This document shows, piece after piece, positions 15,348 through 46,748 of a stretch of DNA of 64,000 nucleotides (position 1 is the first letter of the stretch; every line of letters starts with the position of its first letter). Origin of the DNA: Agarophyton chilense (Eukaryota > Rhodophyta > Florideophyceae > Gracilariales > Gracilariaceae); NCBI GenBank assembly GCA_030374765.1, contig JARGXX010000002.1, forward strand, positions 248,001 through 312,000, read 5' to 3'. Position numbers and translations under genes: made by a program. The notes beneath the pieces are model-generated. The model made no database searches. It worked only from the letters and a program-made list of their open reading frames with translations, and was not told where the DNA came from.

Positions 15348-15665
15348 ATGTGTCAGCTATCAAAAAATATAGATACAAAGACTTGGACAGCCAGTGTTCG
15401 ACTGGAGCCCATTGAGGCCGAAGATTTGTGGTATATATACAACTTGCTGAGCGAGGAAGACCAATTAAGATGCTCCATAATTCGGAAGGTGCAATCCGAG
15501 ACTTCCACCGGCAGTGTGTCTGCTCAACTAATGAGGCTGACTCTCACCGTTGCCATCCAATCTTTCGAATTTGACGCCGTGGTCTGCCAAATGCGTGTCA
15601 CCGGTCGCGTAGTTTCAGATAATCAACATGTTCCATCAGGATCGCATCACACGTTGGATCTGTAG
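15348..15665 (+). pseudogene. Pelota (Dom34) N-terminal fragment, cut by RE-1
   Basis: The frame encodes about 105 residues of the Pelota/Dom34 N-terminal (Sm-like) domain, the factor that with Hbs1 rescues stalled ribosomes in no-go and non-stop decay. Diagnostic blocks: LEPIEAEDLWYIYNLL, RCSIIRKVQSETSTGSV, LTLTVAIQSFEFD and HHTLDL, in the order and spacing of Pelota. The start at 15348 (MCQLSKNID) aligns with the family's MKLVSK-type start. The coding sequence ends exactly where the RE-1 LTR begins (15661), which supplies the stop codon. The central and C-terminal eRF1-like domains are missing, and the sequence after the other LTR (26356 onward) does not continue the protein. Since Pelota is normally a conserved single-copy gene, an intact copy probably exists elsewhere. 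Confidence 0.85.
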
Positions 15666-16582
15666 TGCAACGCCAAGGGCGGCGGAAACACACGAAGATG
15701 TCCGAGTCTTCCTCCAAGGAGGGTAGCACGGCGACGGAGCCTCTCCGGAGTGAACACGACTGAGTCGGGGAGTAAGGCCGAGGTTCACCGGCACGCCAAG
15801 CGGGGAGAGTGCGGGATGCTAGAAGGGAGCAGACCAGGTATGAGCTGTATTCCACGGGAGTGGGCAAGTCTCGAGATCGAGTAATGCACCCACAGGAGTG
15901 GCGGTAAACACGGTAAGCCGGCGCGCGGCACACGCGCGAGCGGCACGAATAACCAGCCACAAAGCAAAAGGGGGAGCTACCACGAGAGTGGGTAAGCGAT
16001 AAAGGGGGGACCACCCAGTGGGGGCGATCGGGGGCATGGGCCATGAGAGCCAAAAGAAATATGTAGCAAACCCAATACTGGGGCGAGAACACGGCAGTGG
16101 TATGAAAGATATACACGCTAACAGCGGTGAGTCTTCTGTTGACGCAGGGTGGATATGTCTACCGTTAGTAACGCGGCTTCACCTCCGTAGAGTGTGGAAG
16201 ACTCGCGAAAGCGGAAAAAGACTTAGAGCCAAGAACCCTGGTCGGGGAGGTTTACTGAGTGTCAGGGCGAGATCGCCTTGGCACTATATAGTGTAGAATA
16301 CTGTAAAGAGCTCGCTAACCTAGTGTAATAAAGCTAAATAAATAGAGAAATATCCAGCTATGCTGTGCCAACCTGTCCTGGGCCACCCGTGGTACACGTG
16401 GGTAAGTTACACCCGAATCGGGGCCACGGCGCACGGCCGCCGGTGCACTTCGCGTACAACGCGTATACACTTGGCTACGCCAGCCCGCTAGTAGCGGTAT
16501 TACTCATAGATCTCACAAGTATCGCCCGAGGCGGAAAAACAACCAAGTCCTGGAAAACGGCCCTCACGAGGGTTGCACTTCA
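15661..16582 (-). repeat. RE-1 3' LTR
   Basis: A 922-bp long terminal repeat, near-identical to 25428-26355 over its length. The ends are TGTAGTGCAAC and GTTGCACTTCA on the plus strand, forming the usual imperfect inverted termini. It truncates the Pelota gene at its left edge. Confidence 0.93.
16282..16293. promoter_or_regulatory. Palindromic TATA motif in the RE-1 3' LTR
   Basis: CACTATATAGTG is a perfect 12-nt palindrome, repeated in the 5' LTR at 26055-26066 and nearly kept in the RE-4 LTR (AACTATATAGTGT). In the sense direction it sits about 300 bp into the LTR, as expected for a U3 TATA box. On the plus strand it lies about 325 bp upstream of the antisense gene at 16618. Bidirectional use is an inference. 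Confidence 0.5.
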
Positions 16583-16592
16583 TATCCCCCTC
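16583..16592 (-). other. RE-1 polypurine tract
   Basis: GAGGGGGATA on the minus strand, directly adjacent to the 3' LTR, the expected plus-strand primer site. The same ten bases occur at the same place in RE-2 (45853-45862). Confidence 0.8.
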
Positions 16593-16617
16593 CTGAGGCG
16601 CGAGTACGACATCCGCG

Positions 16618-18555
16618 ATGGTGGGCGACGCGCCGAGACGAATGCATAAGAGTGCAACCAGCTCGCTGGGATCCACTTCATCCGATGCCAACAAACGCAG
16701 TGCGGCAAAACTCCAGTCTCCTGGCAACAACCGTTCTCAACGTTCCATCTCAACCGAATCCGCATCCTTGCGTGCCAGTCCTCCGATTCCTCGGCATCGT
16801 CTTTCGCTTCGCCGGTCTCCTCTTCCGGTCATCCGGCCTCTTCGCTCACCGATGAGCAACCAAAACAATCAACCCAACCGTCTCCCTGCGGGGTACTTTT
16901 CCGGTTTCCGGTCCGGTCCGCTTCCGCAAAGCGCGTCATTGGCTGCGCCGCAGATTCCTATCGCGAACGCGGCTGCTGCTCCGTACGGAATGTTCCCCCC
17001 GAGAGGGTGGCCGCCATACGACATGCTTGTCGGGCGCCATCCTGGGCATCATGCGTCCGTTCTCCGGCTTGCGCCGTGGTTCCACCCGATTGCGGTGTTA
17101 AACGAAGCGCTCATAGCGATGTACACCGATGGAAACGGGATGCTTCCGGGGGATATTCCGGCCGTGGCGACAACTTCGTTGGATTGGCGACGGCGCGTAG
17201 CGGTTCCGGTCCACGCTGTGGCGCGCCGGGGTAGTGAAACCTCGGCTTCCGCTCATGCGGCCTTCGTCCTTCTTGGCCATCAACGGCTTCGCCGGGCTCC
17301 TTTCGAATATCCCATCCCCGATGGTCTCGGCACCGACATTCGGCTTTACCGCACTCAAGGTGAGATTGGTTACGTCGACCGCCTGGCGGGTTTGGAAACA
17401 CTCTCGTGGAGAGGCATCCCGATAGCACGGCAAGAGGCCATGTGCTGGACGCGACCGATTATCCGGGCAGAATTCCGCTACATGCGTCGACTTGCGCGGG
17501 CCAACTTCCTCGCCCTGATCCGCTTCGAGCGTCGAGCACGATCCCGATTCGGGTATTTGGTCCCGTATCAGAACGTGGAGATCGAACGCCTTCGCGTGGC
17601 CGACCGACGGGGTCGCTATGTCCTCATTCCACCGTGGTGGTCGAACCTCGAGGCCTGCCGGGGCTGTTACATCGAGCTGCCACCCGTCATCACGTATTAC
17701 GGTTCGTACCTCATCGAGGATCCCGAGTCCGGACTGTGGTCCGTGGTGATTACCGAATGGGCAGTCCGCGCGGTGGTGTTCATCCTCTGGGAGGTGTATG
17801 ACCAGTACAGACTGTGGTTCCTCCCGTTCCGGTTGAGGTCCGCGATTCGCAGCCTAGACCTGAGCATCCCACTTGGTGGAGTAACCAACGCCGAAGAAGT
17901 GACGGGTCTTTTCGATTACATCGATCAGTTGGACTGGACCACCGTTCCGATTGAACAAAGCGGGCGCACCGTGGGTAGCCGGGGTCAGGACCTGTCACCA
18001 GGAAGGCGTACTCCCTTGGGAGGTGATTTCGTATACTTTGACCCTTGGGAAGGGCACGAAATCACCGCGGAGGAGTCGAACGAACTCCGGTTTGCACCAC
18101 GCCATATCCCCGAGGGGCATCCGATCGGTTTCGTGGATGCGGATGAATATTACCACGTCTACGACGGCGACGATCCAATGGTGGACAACGAACCCGACGA
18201 CGGGGAAGCGTACGCCGAGGCGGAGGTCGAGGGATCCGAAGCGGAAGGTCCCTATAACGCTGGGACGCCAGCCACGCCTTACGTGGATTTGAATAATCCC
18301 GCGGGGGCTGGGTCGGAGTACGCGGTTGCTGGACCACCTCCGGTTCCACCAATGAATCTCCCAAGTGGTGGGGCGTCCGCCCCAGGCGATGCGAGCTCCG
18401 CTCCGGCGGCTCAAGCGGCCGTGATCTCCCAGTTCCCGCGACAGGTGGGGCTGGGGACCAACGCAGCGAGTGGCGATGTTGCCGCAATGCGCGAGGCCTT
18501 GATCACCCGCCTCCAGGGAGGTAACCAACCCGGGGGCGGTGAGCCGAACCCGTGA
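16618..18555 (+). CDS. Antisense accessory protein of RE-1 (aORF), intact, unknown function
   Basis: A 645-codon open frame on the strand opposite to gag-pol, tail-to-tail with pol (240 bp gap) and starting 35 nt after the LTR edge. I recognise no known domain. The N-terminal about 90 residues are Ser/Arg/Pro-rich and basic, ending at a conserved PAGYFSGF motif. The centre (about 110-440) is a globular, Arg/Tyr/Trp-rich region with PYQNVEIERL, WWSNLEACRGCYIELPPV, GSYLIEDPESGLWSVV and a hydrophobic helix-like EWAVRAVVFILWEVYDQY. The C-terminal third is acidic and Pro/Ala/Gly-rich, with VISQFPRQVGLGTNAASGD near the end. The same protein is encoded by RE-2 and, more diverged, by RE-3, always in this position. 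That conservation, and an open frame in an element with a broken pol, argue that it is a real gene. It could be a nucleic-acid-binding or regulatory protein; no function is claimed. Confidence 0.8.
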   Translation: MVGDAPRRMHKSATSSLGSTSSDANKRSAAKLQSPGNNRSQRSISTESASLRASPPIPRHRLSLRRSPLPVIRPLRSPMSNQNNQPNRLPAGYFSGFRSGPLPQSASLAAPQIPIANAAAAPYGMFPPRGWPPYDMLVGRHPGHHASVLRLAPWFHPIAVLNEALIAMYTDGNGMLPGDIPAVATTSLDWRRRVAVPVHAVARRGSETSASAHAAFVLLGHQRLRRAPFEYPIPDGLGTDIRLYRTQGEIGYVDRLAGLETLSWRGIPIARQEAMCWTRPIIRAEFRYMRRLARANFLALIRFERRARSRFGYLVPYQNVEIERLRVADRRGRYVLIPPWWSNLEACRGCYIELPPVITYYGSYLIEDPESGLWSVVITEWAVRAVVFILWEVYDQYRLWFLPFRLRSAIRSLDLSIPLGGVTNAEEVTGLFDYIDQLDWTTVPIEQSGRTVGSRGQDLSPGRRTPLGGDFVYFDPWEGHEITAEESNELRFAPRHIPEGHPIGFVDADEYYHVYDGDDPMVDNEPDDGEAYAEAEVEGSEAEGPYNAGTPATPYVDLNNPAGAGSEYAVAGPPPVPPMNLPSGGASAPGDASSAPAAQAAVISQFPRQVGLGTNAASGDVAAMREALITRLQGGNQPGGGEPNP

Positions 18556-18794: not shown

Positions 18795-21700
18795 TTACAC
18801 CACCTTCGAACGTGGGAGATGTTCCATCGGCTCATCTGAATCCCATTCGGGCCCTAAACCGTACCAACGGACGAGGTATTGAATATAACCATCCGGATGG
18901 TATGAGTGCTCCACTATGTGGTCGACCACGAACTCCTTCTCGTAGACTTCCCGCCCTTGCGGTGTACGCGTCACCGGACCAAACCGGGGTACGTCCGCAG
19001 GTGCGTGTGGGCTACTGTGCCCTTCCCCCGAGGGTTCCATGGGTTGGCGTTGCCTTTCCATGCCCTGGGTAGGGGAACGAACCGGGTTCCGGGTTGCCTT
19101 GGCCGCTTGGCGGGTTGCTTCCGCCAAGGCGTCATGACGAAGAGCGTCAGTTCGACGGCTTCGGCCGGAGGCCTTCCCGTGGGGCAATTCTCCCAGTTTT
19201 TGGGTCGGAATGCTTTCCGAGAGTTGTCGTGCAGAGGCCACCCTTCGGGGGAACGCGGACTCATCCCAAGGCTGGGTTTCGCGGTCGCGTTCCGCGAGTC
19301 GTCGGGGTGAAATCCGTCGCGACGGTGCTGGACTTGACGCGGGAGGCGGTTTCATCACGGGGCGTTGTGCTTGGCCTGGTGAGCCGCCTTGGGCGTTGAT
19401 TGGCGTATCTTCCGAGCCGGGTGTCGTCTGGTCACGTGACACGTCTGGCTGATGGCTGGGAGTACTCCGCGCCGTGCTGCGTTCCGCCTCCTCACGTGAG
19501 GGCGTGTGCAACGGCGCTGCCGGTATGTCTGCTCGCTAGGGCGACAAAGTACCGCGACGGGCGTGCAACTCCGGGTCAACCGTGCCTTCCTCACCAACGG
19601 GCGGCGAAGTTCGTGGCGAGGAACCCCTGCGGGGAGCGAGTTCGTCCTCAACTATCCCTTTCGAGGGTTCAACTTCACTCGACGACGAGGTGCTTCCGTC
19701 CTTGACGGGCACATTCTCCGGGGTGACCGGTGCGCCTTCGACAACGCTGTCGGGGTCAACCGAGACACTCGGAGTGCGTCCGCCACTGCGCGTGGGTTCT
19801 GAACCAGCATCAAGCGTGCTGGGTGTGAATCTCCCGTCTGCTACGGTGTGCTTGCCCGGCTTAGCCAGTGTGTCCTGCCGTACAGTACGAGGGACCACTT
19901 CCGATCGATTCGGCCTAGAGGGGCCTGCGAGGGCGTGCTCTAAGCTTTCCAGCGTAGCTGGTGTCGACGAACCGTGACCCACGGGCTGCGGGTCAACGCT
20001 GGACGGCATAGCCGGTCCAATTTCGCGAGGGCGAACAGCATCCTGCGACGATTTCGGTTTCGCTCCGGCGAGAGGGTTTCCACTACGTGGTGCGTCCTGT
20101 CGAGTAGAGTCCCCGTGGGGAGTGCGATCAGACGCAGATGCGGTGGCGCTTCCCATAGAGGGTTCAGCAACGGCTGTAGCGCACAAATTCGGAGATGGCA
20201 CGTCGGTAAACGGGACGTCCGGATCACCGTTGTTCTTGCTGGTGTGTCCAAGAGTCCGTGCACCACGGTTGTCATGACGCGACGAAGCGGTTTCCGTCTC
20301 TCGACGAGAGTTATGAGCCTCCTCCCCCTCCTGAGACGGAGCGGAATGGGGAGTCGTTGAAACGCCCAACGGGCGGGGGTAGACACCGCGCCGTGGCGTG
20401 AGAGAAGAGAGGCCATTCTGGCCTTGGTCCGATAAGATCGGCAAGTCAGAGAGTCCCCGGGTAGGGTGTGGTAACGAAGAAGGTCTGGAAACCACGGCAG
20501 TGGGCTGAGCCACTGTTGTGTGCCGAGCACCATCATCCTCAGAGAGGGATTGTTGACCCATTTCGGTTACTTCCAACGTCGGTGGCGGGGCGAGTACAAC
20601 GCGGTCGCGGGAGATCCGCTCATGAGCGTCGACAATTTCCACTACGATGGTGTCGTCTTTCACCAAAATGACCTTGTAAGGACCGTCCGCGACGAAAGAA
20701 AGCTTGTGCTTCTTTTCCTTTTCAGGGTTCCAGTACTCCTTACGGACGAAGAAGAAGTCACCGGCTTTGATTGGCGGGGCCTTACCGCATACGCGAGAGT
20801 CGAAATCACGCTTGTAAGCGGCTTGGGCACGAGCCATCGAGCTTCAGGCGACCGGGATCAGCTTCGTAAGCCACTCTTTCCACCTGTGGCGATAATCTTT
20901 CACGGAAGGGAACGCATCCAGCGTAGGCTGGGGTTCTAACGCGACAGCGGGCGGAGGGCGGGACAAGACCAGTTCGAATGGAGTCAAGCCCGTAGTACGG
21001 TGTACCTGCGTATTGTACGCGAACGTCAAGGCGTCGGTATATAAATCCCATGTCTTTGGGTGGTCGGCCCCGTAAGGACGGAGAGACGCTAATAGCGTTC
21101 GGTTAAACCGCTCCACTTGCCCATTACACTGGGGGTGATAGGTCGTTGTGAACAGGTTCTTGATGTCAAGAATCCTGCACACGTCCTCGAAGAATCGCCA
21201 TGCGAACTTTTTTCCGTTATCGGATAGAAGATTAACCGGCGGGCCGTAGACGAATACCCAATGGGTTACAAATGCTCGTGCAACCGTGAAAACGGATATC
21301 TTCCGTAGAGGTACGGTCCGAACCAGTTTTGAGAAACGATCCGTGATAACGAGTAAAAACTTATGTCCACGTCGTGTGGTGAGGAGCTTACCGAGGATGT
21401 CAATTGGCGACAAACTCGAGAGGAGCCCGTGCCGGGACTAGTTTCAACTTCGTTGAGTACTTGCGAAGTTTCACCCGATTCTTAGCACATTCGGTACAAA
21501 ACCGCACCGTTGCGTAGCAATCCACCGCCATGGCGGGCCAGTAGAAATTCCTTCGCAAAGTGAGGTAGAGCTTCCGTCCACCGGCGTGTCCACCAAGTTT
21601 CGCATAGTGCGATAGATGCAAAACTCTAAGACTGTAGAGTATGCGGCACCACGACTTGTGGGGATGACTGAACCGTCCTGACGAGGTATCCAAGATCGTT

Positions 21701-24093
21701 CACCTCGAAAGGGAGTTGTGCACTGCCATTAAGCCAGGCGCGAATCTTCGTACCGAAGGGGTCACCCTGCTGTTCTCTGACCATCTCCTCCGGGGGTATC
21801 GACACAAAATTACCTGGCGGGGGTTTCTCTGAATCGTCCGAGACGAGCAATGCGTCAATATCATCATCTGATTCCGGGCTTTCGTTCCATTTATCGTGTA
21901 ACCAATCCGGGTCCCCCGGTGTTCCATCGTCTACGACGAAGCAAGGTATATCCTCGTCATCGCCGGCTAGAGCTTTCCCATTCGTGGGTAAACGCGAGAG
22001 CGCGTCCGCTTGCGCGTCCTGAGTGCCCTTCTTGTAGATCACTTCAAACTCATATTCCGCGAGGCGGAGTCTCCAACGCCTTAAGCGGCCTGACGGCTCC
22101 GAGATGGTCATGAGCCATCGTAGGGACGAGTGATCCGTGTAAACGGTAAAGTGCACACCCATGACGTAGGGGCGGAGTGTAGAGAGGGCCCACACAACTG
22201 CGAGGCACTCCTTCTCTGACACGGAGTAGTTCCGCTCGTGGACATTGAGCGAGCGTGACCAGTACCCAATGGGTTTGCGTTCTCCTTCCGGAGTAGTTTG
22301 AAAGAGCGCACAGCCTACCTGGTAGTCGCTAGAGTCCGTGTCCACGGAAAACGGTAGTCCGGGTTTCGGTAACGATAAAATCGGTGCTGATGTGACAGCC
22401 TCCCTAAGGGAGTTAAAAGCATCCGTCTGGGAGGACTTAAAGGGGTCCAGTTTAGGTGGTTGACCTTTCCGCAGAAGCGCGTTCAAGGGGGCCGCGATGT
22501 CAGCGAAGTTAGGGATAAACCGTCGGTAGACGTTGACCAATCCTAGAAAGGAGCGCAGTTCCGTCTGGGTAGCGGGTTCTTTCGCCTTGCGAAGGGACCT
22601 CACTTGAGCTTCCTCGATCATTACACGTCCCGGACGGATAATGTGCCCGAGATACTTCACAGTATCGGTTAAGAACTCACATTTCCTCAGTTTGAGGGTT
22701 ATTCCAGCATCACGTAGCGTGGTCATTATGTCCCTGACATGGGTGAGATGGTCATCCAGATTGTCTGAGAATACAATGATATCGTCCAAATAGACGAGGC
22801 AAGTACGCCACTTAAAGCGGGCCAACAAAGTGTCGATAGCACGCTGAAAGGTAGCGGGAGCATTGGTTAGACCAAAAGGCATCCGTTTGAAACGGTAGAG
22901 TCCCGAGTGACAGACAAACGCAGTCTTATCTTGGTCCTCCTCCCTAACGGGAACCTGCCAGTATCCCCAATTGGCGTCCAAAGCCGTGAACACGGTAGCA
23001 GTGCCGAGAGAGTCGATGTACTCATCCATTCGTGGGATCGGATACACGTCCTTGACGGTAACATCATTCAAGCGACGGTAGTCGATGCAAAAGCGCCAGG
23101 ACCCATCGGGTTTAGGAGCCAGTACCACTGGGGATGCCCACGGCGACTGAGCCGGTTCGATCACTCCAGCTCGGAGCATTTTGTCCACTTGGAACTGTTC
23201 CTCTTCTCGAGCCTTGGGGCCTGCCCTGTAAGGGTGTTGAGCCACCGGTCTGGTGTTCGGCAATAAATCTATCCGGTGTTCCGTTGTATTTATCTCACCA
23301 AGAGAGCCATCCCACATTGTGGTAAACTCCCGTAACATCTCACGCAGACTTTCACGGTGTGACTCCGGTACATGACCGAGGTAGAGTTTCCCGAGTTCTT
23401 TCAAGGGGTCTACCCGGTCGTAACTCGTCGAAACGGGCTTCTTTTCTGTTTCGGCAGGTTGCGATTCCGAATCATTCGGTGATTGGACGGCAGCTTCCTC
23501 CCCCTCCTTAGAGTGAACGAGACCGAGGACTTCGGCAGCGGTCAGCCTAGTGGGGACCATCGCGGTGGGGTGAGGCATTACCGATCCAATAACTTGGTTT
23601 TTCACCAGTGACTGGGGGGTGGAGCCCAGATTCGCAACGAGCACGGTGGACGGCTTGTCTGGGACAATCTGCGCGACTCCATTCGCCACGGCCAGTTGAT
23701 ATCCATCTTACAGAGATGAGAGAGGCTGAATGACTCGTAAACCGTGTTGACGGGAAGTGACACGCACCCATACTTGGGACTCTGGCGGGATTCGGACAGA
23801 CGCAGCCATGCGAAGCTTGGTAGACTCCCGAGAAGCGGGTGGAGGTTCCTGCGCGGCAGGGAGCGGTACGTGCTTCTTGGAGGCACGCCGCAGCGGACGA
23901 CGGGGGCAGCCAATTTCAGGCATACAATAAAGTCGAGTTTCACCACGAAGGAGCCCAAGCGAACGACGAGAGCGACGGTTCCAACCGTTGAAAACGGGTT
24001 GTTATTCGCGTCCGCGACGTCGGGCGCCCCGCCAAGGCGGATCTGAGACCGCAAGGGCGGGGGCAGCAGCGACTCCACGATGAAATTCGGACC
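18795..24093 (-). pseudogene. RE-1 pol (PR remnant, RT, RNase H, integrase, chromodomain-like tail), broken
   Basis: Polyprotein of a Ty3/Gypsy element, in minus-strand order. A protease remnant without its DTG active site (24093-23602; a further in-frame loss around the region equivalent to CDFCDRF). Reverse transcriptase within 23689-21626, with an intact CLVYLDDIIVFSDN catalytic box. RNase H follows in the same frame (FSVDTDSSDYQVG...). An integrase zinc finger HYAKLGGHAGG...CTECAKN (21693-21400). The integrase core (21413-20844: SPIDILGKLL, LLSDNG, ERFNRT). A C-terminal RKEYWNPEKEKKHKLS block, and finally a chromodomain-like VVDHIVEHSYHPDGYIQYLVRW (18795-19511). Lesions: frameshifts near 21626 and at the first integrase Asp (about 21400), in-frame TGA near 20840 and TAG at 19536-19538. 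RT itself is complete; the element cannot make the full polyprotein. Confidence 0.9.
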
Positions 24094-25267
24094 TCAAGAG
24101 GTATTGTACTGCTTCTGGCCAGCAGGTTACCCCTCCTTCGGAGGCTCTAGACGAACCTCTTACAGAGTTGTATTGATCCTCGGCGAGGCCTTTCATAAAG
24201 TACGGGAGTGCAATAAACGCCTGTCCTTCGGTCATACTGAGAATATCCGCTTCGGCGACGAACCTCGCTTGGAAATCCAACACCAAAATGGGGTCTTCTC
24301 CAGAAAAGCTCTGGTTCCTGAGGGACAGTTGCATACGCTTTATGCAATCCTTCACTCTACCCGTGCCACGGGGCGTGCGATCCAAAGAGGAGTTCTCTAG
24401 CCGATAGTATCGGTAAGAAACCAACTTCTTGAACAGGGGGTTGGTGCATTCCAGCTCCTTCAACCCGGAGTGTTTCCTTCCCTTCTCGCGGGCGCGGATC
24501 ACACCTTGGGTGGCAGACGACCGTTTGGAACGGGATGAACGCCTGCTATGGCCATCGTCAGAAGACGAATCTGACGAGTCTGACCCATTTGAATGGTGAG
24601 AGCCACGCGACGACCGTGAGGAGTTCGACGAGTCAGAGTCATCGCTGTCACGCTTTCCACGCCGACGGCGGGTATCGTCCCTTTTCCTCTCGTGTTTCGC
24701 TTGGTGCGACACAGCAACCGGCTTCTCCGGGACGTCTTCCATCAAGATGGTTTGCTCTAACGTCTGGAGACGGGCGCTAACACGATTGAATCGGGTCTCG
24801 ACACCTTCCACGTAAGCGGCGGGACCACCAAAACATTCCAACAGGGTGTTGACGTCCACCCGCAACAAGCGGAGGTCGTCAACCACTTCCTTCATAGAAG
24901 AGCCATCACACCTGGAACGCAGGGCTTCGAACTCTTCCACGAAGGCATTGTGCGCTTCCCGCATTACGTGGATCTGCTGCCTCACACTTGAGTTGGTGTC
25001 GATGTGGAACTCGTTTTTCTGGGTTTTTTCGGCGGCAGGAGCCGGGTCATCCACGGCAGGGGCCGGTCCAGCACCAGAATTGGGTCCATTCTTCGACGCC
25101 TTAGGCGGTAGCTTGTTGTTCTTGGAGGAGTTCGACCCCTTACTCTTGCCTTTCGGAGCGGCTTGAGGTAACGGCGGGGGAACCCTTCCAGGGTCCGCAG
25201 GCACCACGTCATTGACGGAACGGCTCCGCGTGATCGAGGGTTCCGCTTCCGACGGTAGTCGTGACAT
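24002..25267 (-). pseudogene. RE-1 gag, C-terminus lost by internal deletion
   Basis: Gag structural protein, starting at the ATG for MSRLPSEAEPS, 140 nt after the PBS, the position matching the RE-2 gag start. The N-terminal half is Ser/Pro/Lys-rich and carries an acidic/Ser low-complexity stretch (DSDDSDSSNSSRSS...). The C-terminal part contains the conserved capsid-like block LFKKLVSYRYYRL...RVKDCIKRMQLSLRNQSFSG...QARFVAEAD...GLAEDQYNSVRGSSRASEG. The genuine gag ends at QYLLRS (about 24094). From there the frame runs through deleted-junction sequence into protease DNA until 24002. The zinc knuckle present in RE-2 is missing. Alone it could act only as a capsid fragment. Confidence 0.85.
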
Positions 25268-25406
25268 GGTTGTAGCGTTGACCACTAAGATTAGGACAAC
25301 AAAAGCTTCCACCAAGTGGGTCCAAACCAAGAAATTGAAAAGCAGATCTCGACGAGAGAAGACAGCACAGCAATGTGAAAAACAACCAAACCAGGTCCCC
25401 GTAGCC

Positions 25407-25424: not shown

Positions 25425-25427
25425 GTT

Positions 25428-26355
25428 TGTAGAGCAACGCCAAGGGCGGTGGAAACACACGAAGATGTCCGAGTCTTTCTCCAAGGAGGGTAGCACGGCG
25501 ACGGAGCCTCTCCGGAGTGAACACGACTAAGTCGGGGTGTAAGGCCGAGGTTCACCGGCACGCCAAGCGGGGAGAGTGCGGGATGCTAGAAGGGAGCAGA
25601 CCAGGTATGAGTTGTATTCCACGGGAGTGGGCCAATCTCGAGATCGACTAATGCACCCACAGGAGTGGCGGTAAACCCGGTAAGCCGGCGCGCTGCACAC
25701 GCGCGAGCGGCATGAATAACCAACCACAAAGCAAAAGGGGGAGCTACCACGAGAGTGGGTAAGCGATAAAGGGGGGACCACCCAGTGGGGACGCTCGGGG
25801 GCATGGGCCACGAGAGCCAAAAGAAATATGTAGCAAACCCAATACTGGGGCGAGAACACGGCAGTGGTATGAAAGATATACACGCTAACAGCGGTGAGTC
25901 TCCTGTTGACGCAGGGTGGATAAGTCTACCGTTACCGTTTGTAACGCGGCTTCACCTCCGTAGAGTGTGGAAGACTCTCGAAAGCGGAAAAAGACTTAGA
26001 GCCAAGAACCCTGGTTGGGGAGGTTTACTGAGTTTCAGGGCGAGATCGCCCTGGCACTATATAGTGTAGAATACTGTAAAGAGCTCCCTAACCTAGTGTA
26101 ATAATGCTAATTAAATAGAGAAATATCCAGCTATGCTGTGCCAACCTGTCCTGGGCCACCCGTGGTACACGTGGGTAAGTCACACCCGAATCGGGGCCAC
26201 GGCGCACGGCCGCCGTGGCACTTCGCGTACAACGCGTATACACCTTGCTACGCCAGCCCGCTAGTAGCAGTATTACTCATAGATCTCACAAGTATCGCCC
26301 GAGGCGGAAAAACAACCAAGTCCTCGAAAACGGCCCTCACGAGGGTTGCACTTCA
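25428..26355 (-). repeat. RE-1 5' LTR
   Basis: A 928-bp copy of the 15661-16582 repeat, six bases longer mainly because of a short insertion near 25930-25940 (ACCGTTACCGTTTGTAACG against ACCGTTAGTAACG). It contains the palindromic TATA at 26055-26066. Confidence 0.93.
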
Positions 26356-27442
26356 TCAACTGCTTTAAAAGAGCATCTACAAGCAATACTAATAATCCAG
26401 CACGAGTCACAGCAGTCCCGTTAACGCCACACTGAGCAAAATTACCTTGCAGGAGCCTCTTTGAGTTCATCCGTAAGCTTGGTCTCCTTTGCATTTTCCT
26501 TGCGCTGTTCTGTACCCAACATCCAACCGTTTCTGGGATTGTGTCGCTGACAAACCTGTCCTCTGTGCGCACTAGACCGCCTGCCTCTCCATCTCTTCGA
26601 CGATCCACCCGAATTAGAACTGCGTTTTCGACCCCTTCCTATTTCCCGAGAACCACTAGTAAATGCGTCTTTTCGCGTTGTGCATGGGCGGCTTTGCTGT
26701 CCTCCAGAACGTTTCGGGGCTGGCGTCGGTGCTTGAGCATTTGATGGACATGGAGTGCATGGTGTCGTAAGACTTGCTCCAGATATTCGAAGCGGTGCTT
26801 CATTTGTCTCATTACCTCTTGTTGGGTTGAGAGAAGATGCTGCAACGACGGAAGGATTGTTGGTGCAAGTGCCTATGCTGTCACTGAAAACCAAATGTGC
26901 AGGAGAGCATGGGCTGTTTTGGAGGGTGCCTCTGGAAAAGCGCATATGCGTATCAGCCGGACCTCAACGTGAACTCGTGCTGTGATTGGCTACTGCAAAT
27001 ATGCACCTGCAATGTGGCGTGTACAAGTGGTATGGCACTATTGGGATTTTCTGGAGTACACGTGTGTATGTTGTCTACTTGTACTGTTGTGCACGCTGTT
27101 CAGGATGTTCAGTTGGTGTACTATGTACATGTCTCACAAGGTGTAACGAATGTAATTGGAGAAGAGCGTGTCATGTGTATTACAGAAGACTTGGTGTACT
27201 GTGCTGGAAGGTGAACGTGTATGGAGGCGGATTGCAAGTAGTGTGTGCTGGCATATTGAATTTGTGCACACGTCAGTGTAATTATGGGCTTTGCACTGTT
27301 ATATTGCCTTGTTGTGCCCTGCAATGAACATTGACTAGGGTTAATGTCATGCTTGAAAATGATTGGTAGTATTGGGTGTCCCTTCTTTGTAGTCCAGGGT
27401 TTACTCTGGGTTGGCGTCTAGTTGGCTGACGTTTTTGAGCTG
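26356..27442. other. Unassigned region right of RE-1
   Basis: No gene can be named. On minus, a frame with a stop at 26639-26641 reads through a coiled-coil-like stretch (MRQMKHRFEYLEQVLRHH, about 26700-26845) and into a hydrophobic LLVLLVDALLKQL end abutting the LTR; another minus frame (26442-26945) is basic and Ser-rich. They overlap, so at most one is real. From 26.9 to 27.35 kb the plus strand is TGT/TGC-rich and gives Cys-rich frames that look like compositional artefacts. Confidence 0.35.
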
Positions 27443-30678: not shown

Positions 30679-31336
30679 TGGAACTCATAAGTGACTGTTA
30701 TCATCAGCATTGTGATATGAAACGCCATCCCGCATAGGATGCCTAGAGGCAGAATGTCTTAGTGGAACACGTGGCGTCTTGGGTCGAGTGGCTTCCCACG
30801 GCGCGCGCATAGTTGCGACCCTTCCTAGGGGAATGCCATATTGGCAACGGCGCATGTAGTGGCGATCCATGTGGAGGGCTTTACTACCCTTTGTAGCTAG
30901 ACGTCCATTAGGGACCATACCCATACAGTGGTTTGGCTAAGTGGCTGACCACTGGGTGTTATTTACGTATTATTTGGGCACTCACCCTGGCACACAGTAT
31001 ATAGTGTACCAGAGGTGAGCGCCCACTCCAAGTAAAGGAGACAACATGGGCATCATGACTATTCTGTTCCTCGCTTAGGATTCCTTAACCGGAGATCCGG
31101 ACGAGCTATAATAGATAGTCAGCCCCCAACCACTTCAAGAGCCGTCTCGTACCTACATCCCATCAACGTTTTACAGTTGCACTGTTCACCCTCGCTGGCG
31201 AGTAGTGGCCTTACACCCCACTTCCAGCCCGCTGGTGTTGTAGCTCTACCACCCCTTTTCCTTCGCCGCAAGCGACCCATCGGCAGTCCAAACGCTGTCG
31301 CAGGTTTCTGCTCTCTCCGTTAGAGCGGATACTACA
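30679..31336 (+). repeat. RE-3 LTR (family 3)
   Basis: About 658 bp from TGGAACTCATAAGTGA to GCGGATACTACA. Shared blocks with RE-5 and RE-6 copies include GGCAACGGCRCATRT, AAAGGAGACAACA and TTCCTTAACCGGAGATCCGGAC. It contains a TATA-like CAGTATATAGTG. The start is set by the TGRAACTCATAAGTGA block it shares with RE-6. Confidence 0.7.
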
Positions 31337-32336
31337 ACGACACTATACGGAAAAGAACCAAACTGGATGGGATGAGCTGGTGCAACCGCTCACCTACTAC
31401 TATAACCTTGAAGTACACCGGTCAACGCAGACCACTCCCTTTGATTTGGTTTTTTCGCGACACCCCCCAGGTATTGTAGTGCAGGGAGATCATACCACCA
31501 GCACTGCAGCTGGCGTACTGACCCCTGCCCAAGTCAAGCGAAATACCCTTGTGAGGTTGGGGATGGCTCTCAAACATGCAGAGAGCCGCCTCACTGCAGC
31601 CCAGAAGCGGTACAAGGCCGACTACGACCGTAGGGTAACCAAAAGGGTCTCTGTATCTTCGGGACAATATGTCTACATAGATAACCCACCTTCAGGTAAA
31701 AGACCACGACCGGGTGATGGCACGGACGATGAAGCTATTGATAGAGATATCAATTCGAAGCTTCTACCCAAATCAATGGGACCTTATAAGGTATTGAACG
31801 TATCAGACCACACCGTTACGGTTGACCAAGATGGAATACCGAATACGATATCAATTGACCGTATTACGGTAGCACCGGAAACGGTTCAACATCGCATGGA
31901 GGCGGAAACCTCAGCCCAAGAGCCCAGAGCGGTAGCTCTGCGCACTCGACCCTCGGAGGACCACACCCCAATTTAGGTGAACGATGAACTTCAACGGGAG
32001 GATCCGGATTACAACCCTCTAACAGGGACGGTAATTGAACCTCAAACGGTAACAGCGGCAGCTCACGACCCGGCTCCCACACACGAAGCTCCCAACTCGG
32101 AACATATGAACCATCGAGGTAGCGTTCTCCCGAAAGATCAGGACCAAACCTCACAGGAACTTCCCGTTAACCGTCTGGTGGGCCACAAGCGAACCTACAA
32201 TGGTCTGAAGTACACCATAAGGTGGTACGGCTGCGGGCCAGAAAGGGACATCCTCGAACCCCCAGCCGCAATACCCCCAAACTTCCGTATCAGGTATTGG
32301 CGCCGTCGCAAGGAGCCGATGCCTGCAGACGGCTAA
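31337..32336 (+). pseudogene. RE-3 pol C-terminal fragment (integrase tail and chromodomain-like segment)
   Basis: Begins abruptly at RHYTEKNQTGWDELVQPLTYYYN, the end of an integrase catalytic domain, and continues through TTPFDLVFSRHPPG, RYKADYDRRV and a GPYKVLNVSDHTVTV...ISIDRITVAP block (the GPY/F-like integrase tail). An in-frame TAG at 31974-31976 precedes the last part, which holds NRLVGHKRTYNGLKYTIRWYGCGPERD, a diverged chromodomain-like sequence. The core DDE residues are absent, so it cannot integrate DNA. Confidence 0.75.
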
Positions 32337-32496: not shown

Positions 32497-34962
32497 TTAA
32501 GAAGGACCTGTCGATTTAGGAGCAATGGAATCAGGAGGAGCCGTGTTAGTGACTACCCACGGAGGAGAACCAGCGGAAATGCTAGGAGCCATCGACCTAA
32601 GCGGTAGCGAAGGAGCGGTAGCCCCGCTACTGGGGAGAGCAGTCGAAACCAAAAGAGGATGAACGAAAGGAACCGCCGGAGTGGGTTGCAAAACCGTAGG
32701 GTTCAAGTTAGCACCTAGAAGGGGATCCGTCAGAGGATCAGATGGCGCAGCAGCAGAGACGCTAAACAGATTGGCAACCTGACGGGTGGCCAGTTGGTAC
32801 ATGTCCAACTGGAACTGATTCCGGAACTCCCCAAGTTGGTTTAGCGCCTTCAGGTATTGCGCATGGCGCGGCAGCAAACCTTCAAGGAGCGTTAATGCAG
32901 CAACCACGGATGTAGGCCCAGCCCTCTGAAAGTTGGTGACGCAAGCCTGGCGAATTCGAGCCAGCAAACCGACCACGGCCGGAGAATCCATCATAGGTTG
33001 AGGCGGAGGACGAGAAATACCCGCCAACAGAGGTTGAACCGGACCAGCAACCCGCGAGGAGCTCGGTTGAGTAGGAGTCACACCTGTAGGGATATGCAAC
33101 TTACGATCTTGAGGTAACGGCTCGGGCGGAAAGGGACCAGCATAATGACCAACCGGTGTCTCCATAATACCGTGATAAGGTTTGGGGCTCGCAGGAGTTC
33201 CATAAACAGGAGGCTCCCCGGAATAATATCGGCCATGGGGAGGCACACTCTCCCAAGTTGCGGGATCGAAAGCCTCCCAACCTTGATGGAAATCCCAATG
33301 GGAACTCTTGCTCTGCCCGAGATACGAGTCCAAATCCTTCACGGTATCATCGGTTCCCTGAACGATGTTCTCGTAACCAAATAAAAAAATATCCTGGACA
33401 ACCCTCGGAGGTATGAAGAAGATGCGATCTACAGGTTGAACACCATCTCGTTATAAGTCAGAGTCAAGATTGCCACAATCCCAATCGATGTCGTAACGGG
33501 CAGCCTCCAGAGCCAGGATGGAAACCAACATGGTCCACTCCGAGAGGGCAATCGACCAAATGAGGTAATACCGCTCTAGGTTCCCGTAAATCTGACTCCC
33601 AAAGTACGCCATGACCGGCGGAGTGGGCACGCTCAGCGATAATGGAACCTCATAGGACTTCCACCACTCTGGTCGAAGCACGTACCAGTCGCTTCTACCC
33701 TTTGTAGGTTGTGAAAAGTACTTGACGTTATGAAACATATGCATAACGCGAGTGTAAGAGTTGCGAGTGCGAACGCGACTCTCGGTCGCTGCATCCTCGC
33801 CCCACCTACTACGGTCAGCCCAATTGATAGTGGTGAAAGGCCGATTCAGGGAAACCAAGTCAGGTGAAACTGGGAGGTAAGTTTCCGGAATAGACGGGTA
33901 CTGGCACACTTGCACCACCAATCGACGGTAATATTCCAGCTCCTGTTCGATGCTCACATACAGCAAGTCACTCGGATACATCGGCGGGATGAAATACCTC
34001 AAAGGTGTATGACCCTGCCCACCCTGGTAACATTCCATTCGACCCTGACGAGGTTGAGACTCTTGGTCCTTTTTCTTCAAGAGCAATGGAACGGAGCGAA
34101 GGCACTCGCAGTCCCAACGGGACAAACCCAACTACGTATCCAATTGTGGTCTAGTGAAAGCTGCCGGCAATGACGAATTCCCCACCGCCACAGGCCAATC
34201 GTGCTTCAACAGGTCACTATGCGTCACCTGGTCGAAGGTAATACCAAAAGGTCCATACTGACAGATCGTTCGGTTCGCCGCACCAAACGCGAGATTTTGA
34301 GCCCAATTGGTTTGTTTTGTCGCAGGAAATCCACCACTGCGTTGGTATGGGTCAGCCGGAGTCCCAGGAGAGAACTGTGTCGCAGGGACAGGCACGCTGA
34401 CAAAACCAATGTTGGTAGGCGTTCGAGAAGTCGAGCGAGTCACCCTCTTGGTAATATCACTGCGTCCACGGCCACGCGATGTGCAGCTACCTGACATGTT
34501 TGGGAAGGCCGTAGCTCGACCCGACGAACGAGGTAATGACTCGACCTCCACCGGCGCGGTGAAAACCAGCGAGTATTCATCCTTCTGAAGTGGCGCCTCC
34601 TCGGTCCGTTCTGAGGAGACGGTCAACGTATCCAACTTTTCTGGTAGTACCGACATCGACCTTTCAGGTGCAACAGTTGCCAGCGTACGATCGCGAGCGG
34701 TTCCAGACCTTTGAGGTATCGTGGAGCGGGACCAATCCGACCTTAAAGGCATAACTGCAGGGGTATCAATCCCCTCGGAATCGCCGACTTCTTTAACCTC
34801 AATGGTAACTGGCATCTCACGTCTCTCGAGCGCTGGTGCTGCTTGTGAGGACGACCCACCCGTTCGAGGTATCGGTGACGAATCTACGATGCGGCGCGAG
34901 GGGCATCGACGTGGCACCGAACGGATTCGAACGCGTTCGTGGAGATGGCGCGATCCTGTCAT
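32497..34962 (-). pseudogene. Antisense accessory gene of RE-3, two in-frame stops
   Basis: A single minus-strand frame of about 820 codons from ATG 34962 to 32497, broken only by TAG at 34132-34134 and TAA at 33451-33453, with no frameshift. It occupies the same tail-to-tail position after pol as in RE-1 and RE-2 (160 bp gap). The middle part, WWKSYEVPLSL...PPVMAYFGSQIYGNLERYYLIWSIALSEWTMLV, aligns with WWSNLEACRGCY...GLWSVVITEWAVRAVV of RE-1, showing a diverged homologue. The C-terminal part is Pro-rich and ends in a longer helical segment (VVAALTLLEGLLPRHAQYLKALNQL...) not seen in the other two. Function unknown. Confidence 0.7.
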
Positions 34963-35040: not shown

Positions 35041-35626
35041 TCTCACACCCGGAAGCTTCCACCACAGACCCAGGCCAACACCTCAATGGTTGTATCGACG
35101 CAGGCTCAGGCCCCACAGGCGCCACATGTCAATCCTTAAAAGGTAGACGAAACCTGAAAGGTCGAGAAGCCAGGAAACCTTCAGGGAAAGCCGGACAGCA
35201 AGATTACGGTCGCGACGCCGCCATTTAAGGGCAGCAATACCTGAAGGGTTGTCAAGCAGTGGGAATGACCAGATGGAACGGCGCGCGCAGGGACCTAGGA
35301 GGGAAATGAAGTTTGAGCAACTAGGAAATGTGCGATACCAACTTGATTAAACAGTGGGGTATGCGGAAGCAGAATCGCAAGCAAGCAGGGCCACTACCGA
35401 AAAAAGGTCCACCAGCGCGTTATTGACACTGCAACGCCCTTATGACAGTCCCTACCTGAATGTTTGTCGCTCAATTCGTGCGCCGCCGTCGTCGCTCGCC
35501 CTCCCCAACCGACACTGGCGCCGAGTTCTGAACCTCAAAGGATCGCATGCCGCGCACCGTGAGCAACCGCCGACAGACACCACTCCGATGCCCGCGCCGC
35601 TGTCGCTCGCTACACTTCTATGTTTT
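35041..35626. other. Unassigned flank between RE-3 and RE-2
   Basis: No recognisable gene; a 91-codon plus frame at 35354-35629 has no motif. The imperfect repeated word AAAGGT(A/C)GA.(A/G)A..C near 35135-35190 and several ACCTGAA(A/G)GG words (35150, 35250) are the only structure noticed. Confidence 0.35.
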
Positions 35627-36512
35627 TGAAGGACAATGCCCTTCAAGGGGGTTTCTTCGCAGGACTTAGACATTTCGCTGGCTTGAGGAATAGCTTGGGC
35701 TATGACAAGCTATACCGCTATTGCGTACTGACGGACGGTTATGACCGGAAGTTCACACTGGTGGAACACGTGTACTGCACGGATGCCGACGCTCGAGTGC
35801 GAGGCGTGCCACACATGGCCCGGATTCTACCTAATGGATAGTATTGTTTAGTAATTTTTAGTATTTATTTAGCTACGCTATCGCTATTTAGTGTCTATTT
35901 TTCGGGCGCGCGCCCACTGTCAGGGGCCGCGCGCCACACTACTTAGGAGGTTGAGCACTGCTCCCCAGTAAACACCCTCTTGGGAGACCAAAGAGGGAGT
36001 CTTGGCTCTGAACTTTTCGCCTTCGGCGCGTCTTCACCGCATACTGCGTGAGCGCCCGTCGCACGTTAGTTCATCCACCCCTCTGTCAATTAGAGTGCTA
36101 CCACTACCGTGGGTTCATATTTAATCGCCGACACTTGTCGTAGTCTCGCCTCTGTATAGGGTTTCGCCCCCGTTTTCCTCTTGTTCTCCCTTTCGGCTTT
36201 CGTGAGTGGCCGCACCACTCATCTCGCTCGTCCACCTCATACGAGTGTTTCCTCGCTTTTTTTCCGACAATCGCCGTGGTACCGCTCCGCATAGGATTGG
36301 TCACAACCCGGACTGTGCCGTGGTCCCCTAAAAAATCTAGGTATATCCCGCCGGATTGGCCTCGGTCTTACACTCGACTCCGTCGTGGCTTTCCAGAGTG
36401 GCTCTGTTTGTGTGCTCCGCTGAGACGCGTCTCCTCCGCCTGAGGCATGTCTTTCAAGAAAGGAAGATCCCGAACATCTTCGTGATGTCTCCGCTCCAAG
36501 CGTTGTCCTACA
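35627..36512 (+). repeat. RE-2 5' LTR
   Basis: 886 bp, TGAAGGACAAT to GTTGTCCTACA, highly similar to 45863-46748. The 5' tip can fold (TGAAGG / CCTTCA). It includes a TTCATATTTAATCGCC AT-rich core near 36114 that may serve as promoter, and GC-rich GGGCGCGCGCCC. Confidence 0.94.
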
Positions 36513-36677: not shown

Positions 36678-38666
36678 ATGTCGTCCAAAGACAGTTCGAG
36701 GACGCAGAGTCAAACCGGTGCACCGGAACCATCGCAACCATCCCGTATCCCGGTCCGTTCACGGTCTCATACCGGTGGATCGACTGGCGTGCCAGGTGGA
36801 AAGATCTCGAGACCTCCTGTCTCTGATTCGACACCCCCAGCAAGTGGAGCAAGACCGGCGTCTGCCGCCGCCCAGGTACTCTCCCCTGCTAGGGATGTCA
36901 CTCTCCATCCCAGCTTTGCAGCTTTGGAAGAGCAACTCCGCTCTATGCGGGAAGCTAAAGCCATCCTTGCAGAGGAGTTCGATTCCCTTCGCAAGAAGGT
37001 AAATGACACTGCTACGCAGGGTTTTTCTGAGGACCTCTGTGTCCTCCGTGCGGATGTGAACTCGATTCTAAAGCCCCTTGGTGGACCCTCTGCCTTTGTC
37101 AGGGACGTCGCGGACAAGTTCTCGCGCGTCTGAAGCCGTCTCGAAACGTTGGAACAAACCCTTATGTCGGGGGATGATCCAGCCGAGCCGGTTGCAGTAT
37201 CCTACAAGGGAAGAAAGGAAGAGAACCGCCATGATCGAAAGAAGCGAAGGAACACGGATCCAGAACCGTCAAACTCCTCATCCTCGGAGTCCGACTCTTC
37301 CGATTCATCGGTGGAAGTAGCTCGCCGTGAGCGTTCCTCACGCTCTAAGCGGTCAACAGACACCCATGGTGTGATCCGCGCCCGCACGAAGGAAAGGAAG
37401 CACACAGGTTTGAAGGAGCTGAAACCGTCCAATTCGCTCTTTAAGAAGCTCTTATCATACCGGTACTACCGTTTGAAGGACTCCTCTTTGGATCGTACAC
37501 CCCGTGATACGGGAAGAGTGAAGGACTGCATTAAGCGAATGCAGCTCTCACTTCGCAACCAGTTGTTCTCTGGAAAAGACCCAATATTGGTGTTGGATTT
37601 CTTGGCACGCTTTGTCGCAGAAGCTGACATCCTTGCAATGAACGAGGGACAGGCCTACATTGCCTTACCGTACTTCTTACGTGGGCTTGCAGAAGACCAG
37701 TATCACTCTGTCAGAGGTTCATCACGCGCCTCCGAAGGAGGGGTCACATGCTGGCCTGAAGCAGTTCAATACCTCCTGAGGTCTTATGCTACTAATTCCG
37801 CCATTCAGCAGGCTATACTAGCCCTGCGGGACACTCGCCAACGTCCAGGCGAGTCGGAAACCGATTATTCGTCGCGCCTTGACAAGGCCTTCCACCGCTG
37901 TGGCAATGTTTACCCCGATGAAGAGCGTTGTACCATGTTTGTCGATGGTTGGGACCCGGCGATCCGGACTCTTATTGCTCGAAGTCGAGAAGATAGACCT
38001 AAAGCCACGTATTTGGAACTAGAGCAGTTCGCTCGCGCAGAAGGTGAAGCCCTGCACACACGCACTCCTGGATCCAGGGTTAGGTCCGCAAAAGCGTTGA
38101 TGTTACAACCGGTTACCCCGTCAGCTTCGATGATCGACGAACAGGCCTCTCGAAGGGATTATGATAACGTGCAGCTAGCCCATAGCGACGTTCATTCCAT
38201 CCCGACAACGGAGTTACCCTCAACCTTGGACGAATCACAATACGTGATTGAGGATGACACGCTACTCTATGCGGATAATGGTCGCGTCCGTGCGCCACGC
38301 GTCCCACACGAGAGTGGTAATGTCCGTTTTTCGCGTCCTGGTTGGAGAGATACCCGCCCTGCGGTGCAGTTCGCCGAGCCTCGACAACCAACGTCGGCTT
38401 CTGGTCTGATTTGTCATCTCTGCTACAAACCAGGCCATGCTTTTCCACAATGTGTGTTGTCTCTCCGAGAATGGGCACAACTCGTAGTCAATTACGAGGC
38501 CCTATCCCCAGAGGACAAAGCAGCTGTTCCGATTGCATCGTATATCCGTGCTCGAACGGATGTTCCACGTCACGTGTCGCTTCCCCGAGCTCGGATGGAC
38601 CCTGCACAGGAATCCCGTGTCACCGACGTGGTCGGTCACCCCACCACTTCTGCGGTATCTTCTTGA
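36678..38666 (+). pseudogene. RE-2 gag with zinc knuckle, one in-frame stop
   Basis: The nucleocapsid/capsid polyprotein of RE-2: 662 codons in one frame, broken by a TGA at 37131-37133 in DKFSRV*SRLETLEQ, where RE-1 has sense codons. It is Ser/Pro-rich at the start, has an acidic Ser stretch (SSSSESDSSDSSVE), then the conserved LFKKLLSYRYYRLKDSS...RVKDCIKRMQLSLRNQLFSG...LARFVAEAD...LRGLAEDQYHSVRGSSRASEGG capsid-like block. Near the C-terminus (about 38410-38455) is a CCHC knuckle, CHLCYKPGHAFPQC, for RNA binding. The pol frame opens 36 bp after the gag stop in the -1 phase relative to gag, without overlap, so a standard frameshift expression cannot be shown. Confidence 0.88.
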
Positions 38667-38701
38667 CCTGATGCCCAGGCGTTGCCCGCTCAACTTCCTG
38701 A

Positions 38702-45862: not shown

Positions 45863-46748
45863 TGAAGGACAATGCCCTTCAAGGGGGTTTCTTCCCAGGA
45901 CTTAGAGAGTTCACTCGCTTGAGGAATAGCTTAGGCTATGACAAGCTATACCGCTATTGCGTGCTGACGGCCGGTTAGGACCGGAAGGGCACACTGGTGG
46001 AACACGTAAACTGCACCGATGCCAACGCTCGAGTACGAGGCGTGCCTTACGTGGCCCGGACTGTACCTAATGGTTAGTATTATTTAGTAATTTTTAGTAT
46101 TTATTCAGCTACGCTATCGCTATTTAGTGTCTATTTTTCGGGCGCGCGCCCACTGTCAGGGGCCGCGCGCCAAACTACTTAGGAGGTTGAGCACTTCTCC
46201 CCAGTAAACACCCTCTTGAGAGACCAAGGAGGGAGTCTTGGCTCTGAACTTTTCGCCTTCGGCGCGTCTTCACCGCATACTGCGTGAGCGCCCGTCGCAC
46301 GTTAGTTCATCCACCCCTCAGGCAATCAGAGTGCTACCACCACCGTGGGTTCATATTTAATCGCCGACACTTGTCGTAGTCTCGCCCCTGTACAGGGTTT
46401 CGCCCCCGTTTTCCTCTTGTTCCCCTTTTTGGCTCCCGTGAGTGGCCGTCTCACTCACCCCGCTCGCCCCCCTCATACCAGTTCTTCCTCGCTCCTTTTC
46501 CGACAATCGCCGTGATACCGCTCCGCCTAGGATTGGTCACACCCCGGACTGTGCCGTGCTCACCTAAACACTCTAGGTATATCCCGCCGGACTGGCCTCG
46601 GTCTTACACCCGACTCCGTCGTGCCTTTCCAGAGTGGCTCTGTTTCTGTGCTCCGCTGGGACGCGTCTCCTCCGCCTGAGGCGTGTCTCTCAATAGAGGA
46701 AGATCCCGAACATCTTCGTGGTGTCTCCGCTCCAAGCGTTGTCCTACA
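45863..46748 (+). repeat. RE-2 3' LTR
   Basis: 886 bp, the same length as the 5' LTR, with scattered substitutions. Its last 128 bp are in frame with the pogo-like transposase that follows. Confidence 0.93.

What the first reader, a model, noticed from the sequence alone, without database searches (positions are those of the whole stretch)
16618..18555. Conserved antisense gene tail-to-tail with pol in Gypsy-type elements
Seen: RE-1 (16618-18555), RE-2 (43959-45827) and RE-3 (32497-34962) each have a long frame on the strand opposite gag-pol, between the chromodomain-like end of pol and the 3' LTR side, separated from pol by 160-240 bp. RE-1 and RE-2 proteins align end to end (EACRGCY, GSYLIEDP.SGLWSVV.TEWAVR); RE-3 is diverged but keeps WW...PPV..Y.GS and WS...SEW. 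Established: antisense ORFs downstream of pol are known in some plant Gypsy lineages (Tat-type), but I recognise no relationship and no domain. Inference: a lineage-specific accessory gene, which may act in regulation, packaging or host interaction. It may be an undescribed retrotransposon system.
Basis: partly seen in the sequence, partly recalled or inferred. Interest (0 to 1): 0.88.

Follow-up and report, generated by a model that had tools for sequence, protein, structure and literature searches.

The report
Conserved backwards gene in algal retrotransposons
Several families of jumping elements in a red seaweed genome carry an extra protein gene, written backwards beside one end of the element and kept by natural selection; we found no characterised protein that resembles it, so it looks like a new example of the poorly understood backwards genes already known from some plant retrotransposons.

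Summary
RE-1 has an uninterrupted 645-codon frame opposite gag-pol, between the chromodomain end of pol and the 3' LTR; the RE-2 and RE-3 window copies carry the same gene with two in-frame stops each. All three proteins are homologous (RE-1/RE-3: hhalign 96.6%, E 5.6e-10). The gene sits in the same place in two further families, RE-5 and RE-6. Capped own-genome searches list about 520 matches. 54 of 69 RE-1 integrase copies have it nearby on the opposite strand. Between families it evolves as a protein gene (RE-1 v RE-2 dN 0.45, dS about 2.1, saturated; this frame only), about as constrained as gag. Within the recent RE-1 burst it decays almost neutrally. No Pfam match, solved relative or usable fold. 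Database relatives found: Gracilariopsis chorda, Agarophyton chilense (very probably the host) and one unnamed contig. [quoted passage not shown] this is a new, apparently unrelated protein family of that kind in chromodomain-bearing elements. In three families the start codon lies 24-35 bp from the 3' LTR, so transcription probably starts inside the LTR. Function is inferred: an HBZ-like or Grande-gene23-like accessory protein.

The parts
16618..18555 (+). RE-1 antisense gene (aORF), 645 aa, uninterrupted
15661..16583 (-). RE-1 3' LTR (element on - strand); antisense promoter inferred to lie here
   Evidence: LTR pair; TG..CA ends, purine tract beside it
25428..26356 (-). RE-1 5' LTR
18795..25330 (-). 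RE-1 gag-pol region as it stands, frames broken: gag-like, RT-RNase H, integrase, chromodomain about 18798-18956
43959..45827 (-). RE-2 antisense gene, two in-frame stops
45863..46748 (+). RE-2 3' LTR
35627..36512 (+). RE-2 5' LTR
36729..43743 (+). RE-2 gag-pol region, frames broken; chromodomain 43525-43683
32497..34962 (-). RE-3 antisense gene, two in-frame stops, diverged but homologous
31206..32276 (+). RE-3 integrase tail and chromodomain; no further RE-3 pol match upstream in the window
35307..35626 (+). probable start of the RE-3 3' LTR (TGAAG after a purine tract, read by eye), cut by the RE-2 insertion; no LTR pair was found, so inferred
62053..63741 (+). RE-5 gag (one stop between two open pieces); pol and antisense gene follow beyond the window (L064:6575-8332, -, broken by stops)

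Best explanation
This is an accessory gene that belongs to a group of chromodomain-bearing Ty3/Gypsy elements in gracilarioid red algae. Shown: one homologous protein gene, antisense and tail-to-tail to pol, lies beside the 3' LTR in five element families, and selection has kept its protein sequence between families about as strongly as gag. Inferred: the 3' LTR carries an antisense promoter (start codons lie only 24-35 bp from the LTR edge in RE-1, RE-2 and RE-5), so a new copy can make a separate antisense mRNA. Inferred further: the protein (basic Ser/Pro-rich N-terminus, Trp-rich middle, acidic Pro/Ala-rich tail, short conserved C-terminal stretch) works in the host cell as a regulatory or helper factor of the element, as HBZ does for HTLV-1 or as is proposed for the nuclear protein of maize Grande, tuning transcription, silencing or nuclear steps, rather than as an enzyme or envelope.
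For: Frame-specific purifying selection between families (codon-position pattern also in RE-1 v RE-6). dN/dS about 0.21 as in gag (0.21); pol pieces 0.06-0.17. RE-1/RE-3 homology. Same place and strand after the chromodomain in RE-5 and RE-6. Identity to RE-1 falls in the same order for antisense-gene core and integrase core: RE-2 68/77, RE-5 45/62, RE-3 31/50 %, as expected if inherited together; no tree was built. 54 of 69 RE-1 integrase hits have the gene on the opposite strand within 6 kb, median offset 4217. Start codon to LTR edge, counted by eye: 35, 35 and 24 bp in RE-1, RE-2, RE-5, about 100 in RE-6, about 345 in RE-3. An AT-rich TATTTATTTA-like block at a broadly similar depth of U3 in RE-1, RE-2 and RE-6 could be read as TATA-like both ways: a lead only. 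No convincing membrane helix in P0001-P0003. Precedents: PMC7264820 (passages), PMC3185765 (abstract).
Against: No transcript or protein data. The AlphaFold model is poor (mean pLDDT 40.7), so the domain picture is from composition only. No DNA-binding or any other Pfam domain. The RE-3 start is about 345 bp from the presumed LTR edge and the RE-5, RE-6 and RE-3 edges rest on TG plus purine tract, not on an LTR pair. P0004 (RE-3) has one hydrophobic stretch (19-residue mean 2.47). dS between families is saturated, so the ratio is rough. Within RE-1, variants shared by four or more copies are only 9 of 24 synonymous, little above the neutral 28%.
Confidence: 0.6

Rival explanations
1. The protein is a second structural or packaging component (partner of Gag or integrase), made from an antisense mRNA.
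For: It evolves at gag's rate; basic and acidic low-complexity ends around a middle domain are compatible with a scaffold; the gene goes with pol in five families.
Against: The element has its own gag-like gene, with a CCHC-like motif in RE-2 (seen; the motif is recalled). A structural gene expressed from the strand opposite the genomic RNA would be unusual.
Confidence: 0.22
2. The protein counters host silencing or another host defence and is selected for that.
For: High copy numbers; faster change than pol.
Against: No direct evidence; dN/dS is constrained, not raised, in each 100-codon window in which dS could be computed.
Confidence: 0.15
3. The antisense RNA is the functional product (dsRNA feedback) and the frame is incidental.
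For: Antisense noncoding transcripts exist in other LTR elements (PMC7264820, passages).
Against: Codon-position pattern and low dN/dS in this frame across families.
Confidence: 0.04
4. Chance or composition-driven open frames that were copied recently.
For: Within the RE-1 burst variation is nearly neutral: singleton variants 185 of 587 synonymous (31.5%) against 28.6% expected; 24 of 68 RE-1 loci uninterrupted (my count), about what my rough estimate of neutral decay would leave.
Against: Homologous protein across five families and two genera, frame-specific constraint.
Confidence: 0.02

Closest known systems
[quoted passage not shown]
   Same: Place, strand, presence in most copies, conservation like other element proteins, unknown function (PMC7264820: passages and section 5 seen)
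   Different: No Pfam domain in the proteins here and no database hit outside red algae and one unnamed contig; they were not aligned directly with the Grande, RIRE2, PvRetro13 or Boty proteins. Red alga; chromodomain elements; start codon at the LTR edge, whereas Grande gene23 is reported to use a promoter in its upstream region
Retand TRP28 antisense ORFs
   Same: Antisense, pol-3' LTR region, kept in recently active copies (PMC11963269: abstract, background, discussion seen)
   Different: Retand is a non-chromovirus lineage with a transposase_28 domain; none of the 6 members scanned here has any Pfam match at E <= 1
HTLV-1 HBZ and the APH proteins
   Same: Antisense protein whose mRNA starts in the 3' LTR (PMC3185765, abstract); a functional analogy
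   Different: No bZIP or other Pfam domain found; retrovirus of animals; LTR initiation is only inferred here
Env-like extra ORFs of plant elements
   Same: Extra gene between pol and 3' LTR
   Different: Sense strand in those (PMC7264820); no clear membrane features here in P0001-P0003

Membership tests
Antisense aORF between pol and 3' LTR (aORF-3R) | Lies between pol and the 3' LTR | tested here: met
   RE-1 and RE-2 with LTR pairs; RE-3, RE-5 and RE-6 with the LTR edge inferred
Antisense aORF between pol and 3' LTR (aORF-3R) | Antisense to gag-pol | tested here: met
Antisense aORF between pol and 3' LTR (aORF-3R) | Present in most copies of the family | tested here: met
   RE-1 only: 54 of 69 integrase hits; at least 2 of the 15 others have it too; the rest not examined
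Antisense aORF between pol and 3' LTR (aORF-3R) | Conservation similar to other element proteins | tested here: met
   RE-1 v RE-2: like gag, less than pol
Antisense aORF between pol and 3' LTR (aORF-3R) | Antisense transcript | not testable with these tools
   no RNA data available
Retand TRP28 antisense proteins | Transposase_28 domain (PF04195) | tested here: not met
   no Pfam family at E <= 1 in any of 6 members
Retand TRP28 antisense proteins | Non-chromovirus element | tested here: not met
   chromodomain at the pol end (23.8 bits, just under the 25.1 cut-off)
Chromovirus (Ty3/Gypsy with chromodomain) | RT, RNase H, integrase core, then a C-terminal chromodomain, between LTRs | tested here: met
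   RT and RNase H above cut-off; integrase core 30.8 bits (cut-off 32.6) and chromodomain 23.8 (cut-off 25.1) slightly below, in broken RE-1 pieces
HBZ-type antisense regulator | mRNA starting in the 3' LTR | not testable with these tools
   only the position of the start codon supports it
HBZ-type antisense regulator | bZIP domain | tested here: not met
Env-like protein | Sense strand and transmembrane segment | tested here: not met
   antisense; highest 19-residue hydropathy 1.70, 1.45, 1.41 in P0001-P0003, but 2.47 in P0004

The most novel reading that the evidence does not exclude
An ancient antisense gene, driven by a two-way LTR promoter and older than the split of Gracilariopsis and Agarophyton, encodes an unknown class of retroelement regulatory or anti-silencing protein in red algae: an independent counterpart of HBZ in a chromodomain retrotransposon lineage.
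Probability: 0.25. Interest if true: 0.75.

Novelty: new variant of a known kind. Interest (0 to 1): 0.52.

Why it matters
In the two papers seen on this kind (PMC7264820, PMC11963269) antisense accessory genes of LTR elements come mainly from flowering plants, with one fungal case, and their function is called unknown. A large, multi-family red-algal set that shows selection on the protein would give a deep alignment for finding what such proteins do, and suggests that antisense genes beside the LTR arose more than once in eukaryotes. It also names a repeated protein family whose few annotated members (P0002, P0007, P0008) are listed as hypothetical or unnamed proteins.

Tried and rejected
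Fold: AlphaFold2 with 8 sequences gave mean pLDDT 40.7; Foldseek against PDB gave 6 matches, the best at E 4.5; nothing can be read from it. The viral-library search did not run and was not repeated. The second structure job and VIA-align were not used.

Pfam, PHROGs (3 proteins; one hit at E 0.088 in P0004, taken as chance), PDB sequences (none; one at E 0.88, taken as chance): no relative. NCBIfam and PADLOC were not run. Viral contigs: 9 pattern matches, none confirmed.

Loss of the gene in RE-6 was considered when L065 showed only the C-terminal tail. Rejected: 7 other copies keep 1451-1593 bp between the two parts, and L066 carries the gene, with one in-frame stop. L065 has a private deletion.

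Papers: eight searches, each showing only the top 1 to 20 rows. No row shown described a red-algal antisense retrotransposon gene; two Gracilariopsis lemaneiformis genome papers listed (PMC5970526, PMC3713064) were not opened. Seen beyond listings: PMC7264820 (passages and section 5), PMC11963269 (abstract, background, discussion), PMC3185765 (abstract and outline).

Rows dropped: one search used 28 of 30 RE-1 loci (two of other length); one search used 23 of 30 RE-3 loci (length other than 678). Only 30 of 68 RE-1 loci had sequence for these counts. One search ran with loci in mixed orientation and its figures were discarded; one search replaced it.

Full report
What is there. The window lies in a 79.8 Mb genome of 135 contigs. 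One database protein annotated as Agarophyton chilense (P0008) is 100% identical to one locus of this genome and 91% or less to the other loci listed, so the host is very probably Agarophyton chilense (Rhodophyta, Gracilariales). RE-1 (15661-26356, - strand) and RE-2 (35627-46748, + strand) are LTR elements with TG..CA ends, the same primer-binding stretch after the 5' LTR and a purine tract before the 3' LTR. Their gag-pol is broken in the window. RE-1's pieces match RT and RNase H above Pfam cut-offs and the integrase core and chromodomain just below them; RE-2 matches RE-1 in the same order. Among other RE-1-family copies open frames reach 1926 codons.

The antisense gene. RE-1's frame at 16618-18555 has 645 codons. 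RE-2 and RE-3 carry the gene with two in-frame stops each. The RE-1 and RE-2 proteins align over their length. RE-1 and RE-3 proteins are homologous in their middle part, about 220 aligned columns (BLASTP 5e-11; hhalign probability 96.6%, E 5.6e-10). Two further families show the same arrangement. RE-5: gag begins at window 62053 and the antisense gene lies in L064:6575-8332, broken by stops (39% to RE-1). RE-6: L065 shows chromodomain, gene remnant and LTR edge, and L066 shows the gene with one stop (54% to RE-1 over residues 129-632). One search lists further 640-650-codon frames at 42-44% identity to P0003 that look like another family; I did not examine their surroundings.

Copy number. 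Own-genome searches with the gene or pieces of it gave 69 matches at 68 loci (RE-1), 152 (RE-3), 150 (RE-2) and 150 (RE-5). The tool scores only the best candidates, so these are lower bounds for each query. The families differ more from each other (68% or less in the core) than the listed matches do from their own query (78% or more, save a few RE-3 rows at 45-77%), so the lists should be nearly distinct, but I did not compare coordinates between them. Of 69 RE-1 integrase hits at 92% or more, 54 have an RE-1 antisense gene on the opposite strand within 6 kb (median offset 4217). Of the 15 others at least two, at C71:1333184 and C4:139171, do have one's list; the remaining 13 were not examined and may be truncated, unscored or without the gene.

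Selection. In RE-1 against an uninterrupted RE-2 copy (L062), 612 codons, differences at codon positions 1/2/3 are 220/191/376, dN 0.445 and dS 2.1; with L061 they are 231/196/380, 0.478 and 2.1. The strand of pol has 7-22 stops per frame there (L062 comparison). Gag gives 0.38/1.80, the integrase core 0.16/2.74, RT-RNase H parts 0.19-0.20/1.15-1.73, so the antisense gene is held about as tightly as gag and less tightly than pol. RE-1 against RE-6 agrees in codon positions: 107/86/196 over 322 codons and 61/47/108 over 175; RE-1 against RE-5 gives 64/63/109 over 161. dS near or above 2 is saturated and could not be computed in some comparisons, so ratios are rough. Within families the picture is different and must be told. 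Among 28 of 30 RE-1 loci mean dN/dS is 0.65; singleton variants are 31.5% synonymous (185 of 587) against 28.6% expected under the observed spectrum, and 17 singletons are stops. 24 of 68 RE-1 loci have no stop over at least 640 codons (my count; one of them, L026, lacks the ATG). By a rough hand estimate (about 30 changes per copy, 3.7% of them stops) neutral decay would leave about a third. RE-1 variants shared by two or more copies are 39 of 97 synonymous, those shared by four or more 9 of 24. In RE-3 (23 of 30 loci, 226 codons) dN/dS is 0.45 and variants shared by four or more copies are 10 of 14 synonymous against 28% expected. The whole is what one expects of a gene selected in the active lineage and drifting once a copy is inserted, though the within-RE-1 signal alone would not prove it.

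Inheritance. Identity to RE-1 falls in the same order in the antisense-gene core and in the integrase core (RE-2 68/77, RE-5 45/62, RE-3 31/50 %; the RE-3 integrase piece has two stops and the RE-3 gene match covers 102 residues). This fits descent with the element from a common ancestor; no tree test was done. Relatives in the protein database are Gracilariopsis chorda P0002 (44%), Agarophyton chilense P0007 and P0008 and one unnamed contig, P0003. In each search only the 8000 or so candidates sharing most words were scored, so more distant relatives may be missed.

How it may work. In RE-1, RE-2 and RE-5 the start codon lies 35, 35 and 24 bp inside the 3' LTR edge (counted by eye), in RE-6 about 100 bp, in RE-3 about 345 bp if the LTR edge is read correctly. 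In the first three the promoter can hardly lie anywhere but in the LTR (inference). A TATTTATTTA-like block roughly 190-250 bp into U3 in RE-1, RE-2 and RE-6 (counted by eye) could serve both directions; this is a lead, not a result. The protein is basic and Ser/Pro-rich at the N-terminus, Trp-rich in the middle and acidic, Pro/Ala-rich near the C-terminus (P0001 and P0002), with a short conserved C-terminal stretch. No family, solved structure or usable model identifies it. I therefore commit to an accessory regulatory or helper protein made from an LTR-driven antisense mRNA: gene and selection are shown, the promoter is inferred from anatomy, the function is inferred from analogy with HBZ (PMC3185765, abstract) and with nuclear Grande gene23 (PMC7264820, passages).

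Known or new. [quoted passage not shown] PMC11963269). This family meets the positional, orientation, frequency and conservation features of that kind, as far as tested. It fails the tests for Retand TRP28 (no domain, chromodomain present) and for env-like genes. None of the rows shown by the eight literature searches described a red-algal example. I rate it a new variant of a known kind.

Noticed in passing
window 18960-20600 (RE-1, -): Long Ser/Pro/Thr-rich stretch of several hundred residues between the integrase C-terminal part and the chromodomain, also present but shorter in RE-2; it seems unusual for a chromovirus pol (recalled, not searched).
   Followed up: no
window 15641-15660, 26357-26376, 35607-35626, 46749-46768: Neither RE-1 nor RE-2 shows an obvious target-site duplication next to its LTR ends (read by eye).
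   Followed up: no
window 8663-9158: Repeats at offsets of multiples of 54 bp inside the 539-aa frame at 8016-9635.
   Followed up: no
window 46702-47922 (+): 407-residue frame that resembles a DDE transposase of the pogo/Tigger type (recalled resemblance), starting at the end of the RE-2 3' LTR.
   Followed up: no
window 29180-30470 (-): Fragment of another element with chromodomain (57% to RE-1) and an RE-1-like LTR piece.
   Followed up: partly
L063:3754-6280: RE-5-type antisense gene and 3' part (93% to L064) abutting or inside an RE-3 pol region: a nested insertion or rearrangement.
   Followed up: partly
window 61358-61758, 48012-48717, 30709-31331: Related LTR-like pieces, the first ahead of RE-5 gag and partly matching L064 after its antisense gene.
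   Followed up: partly
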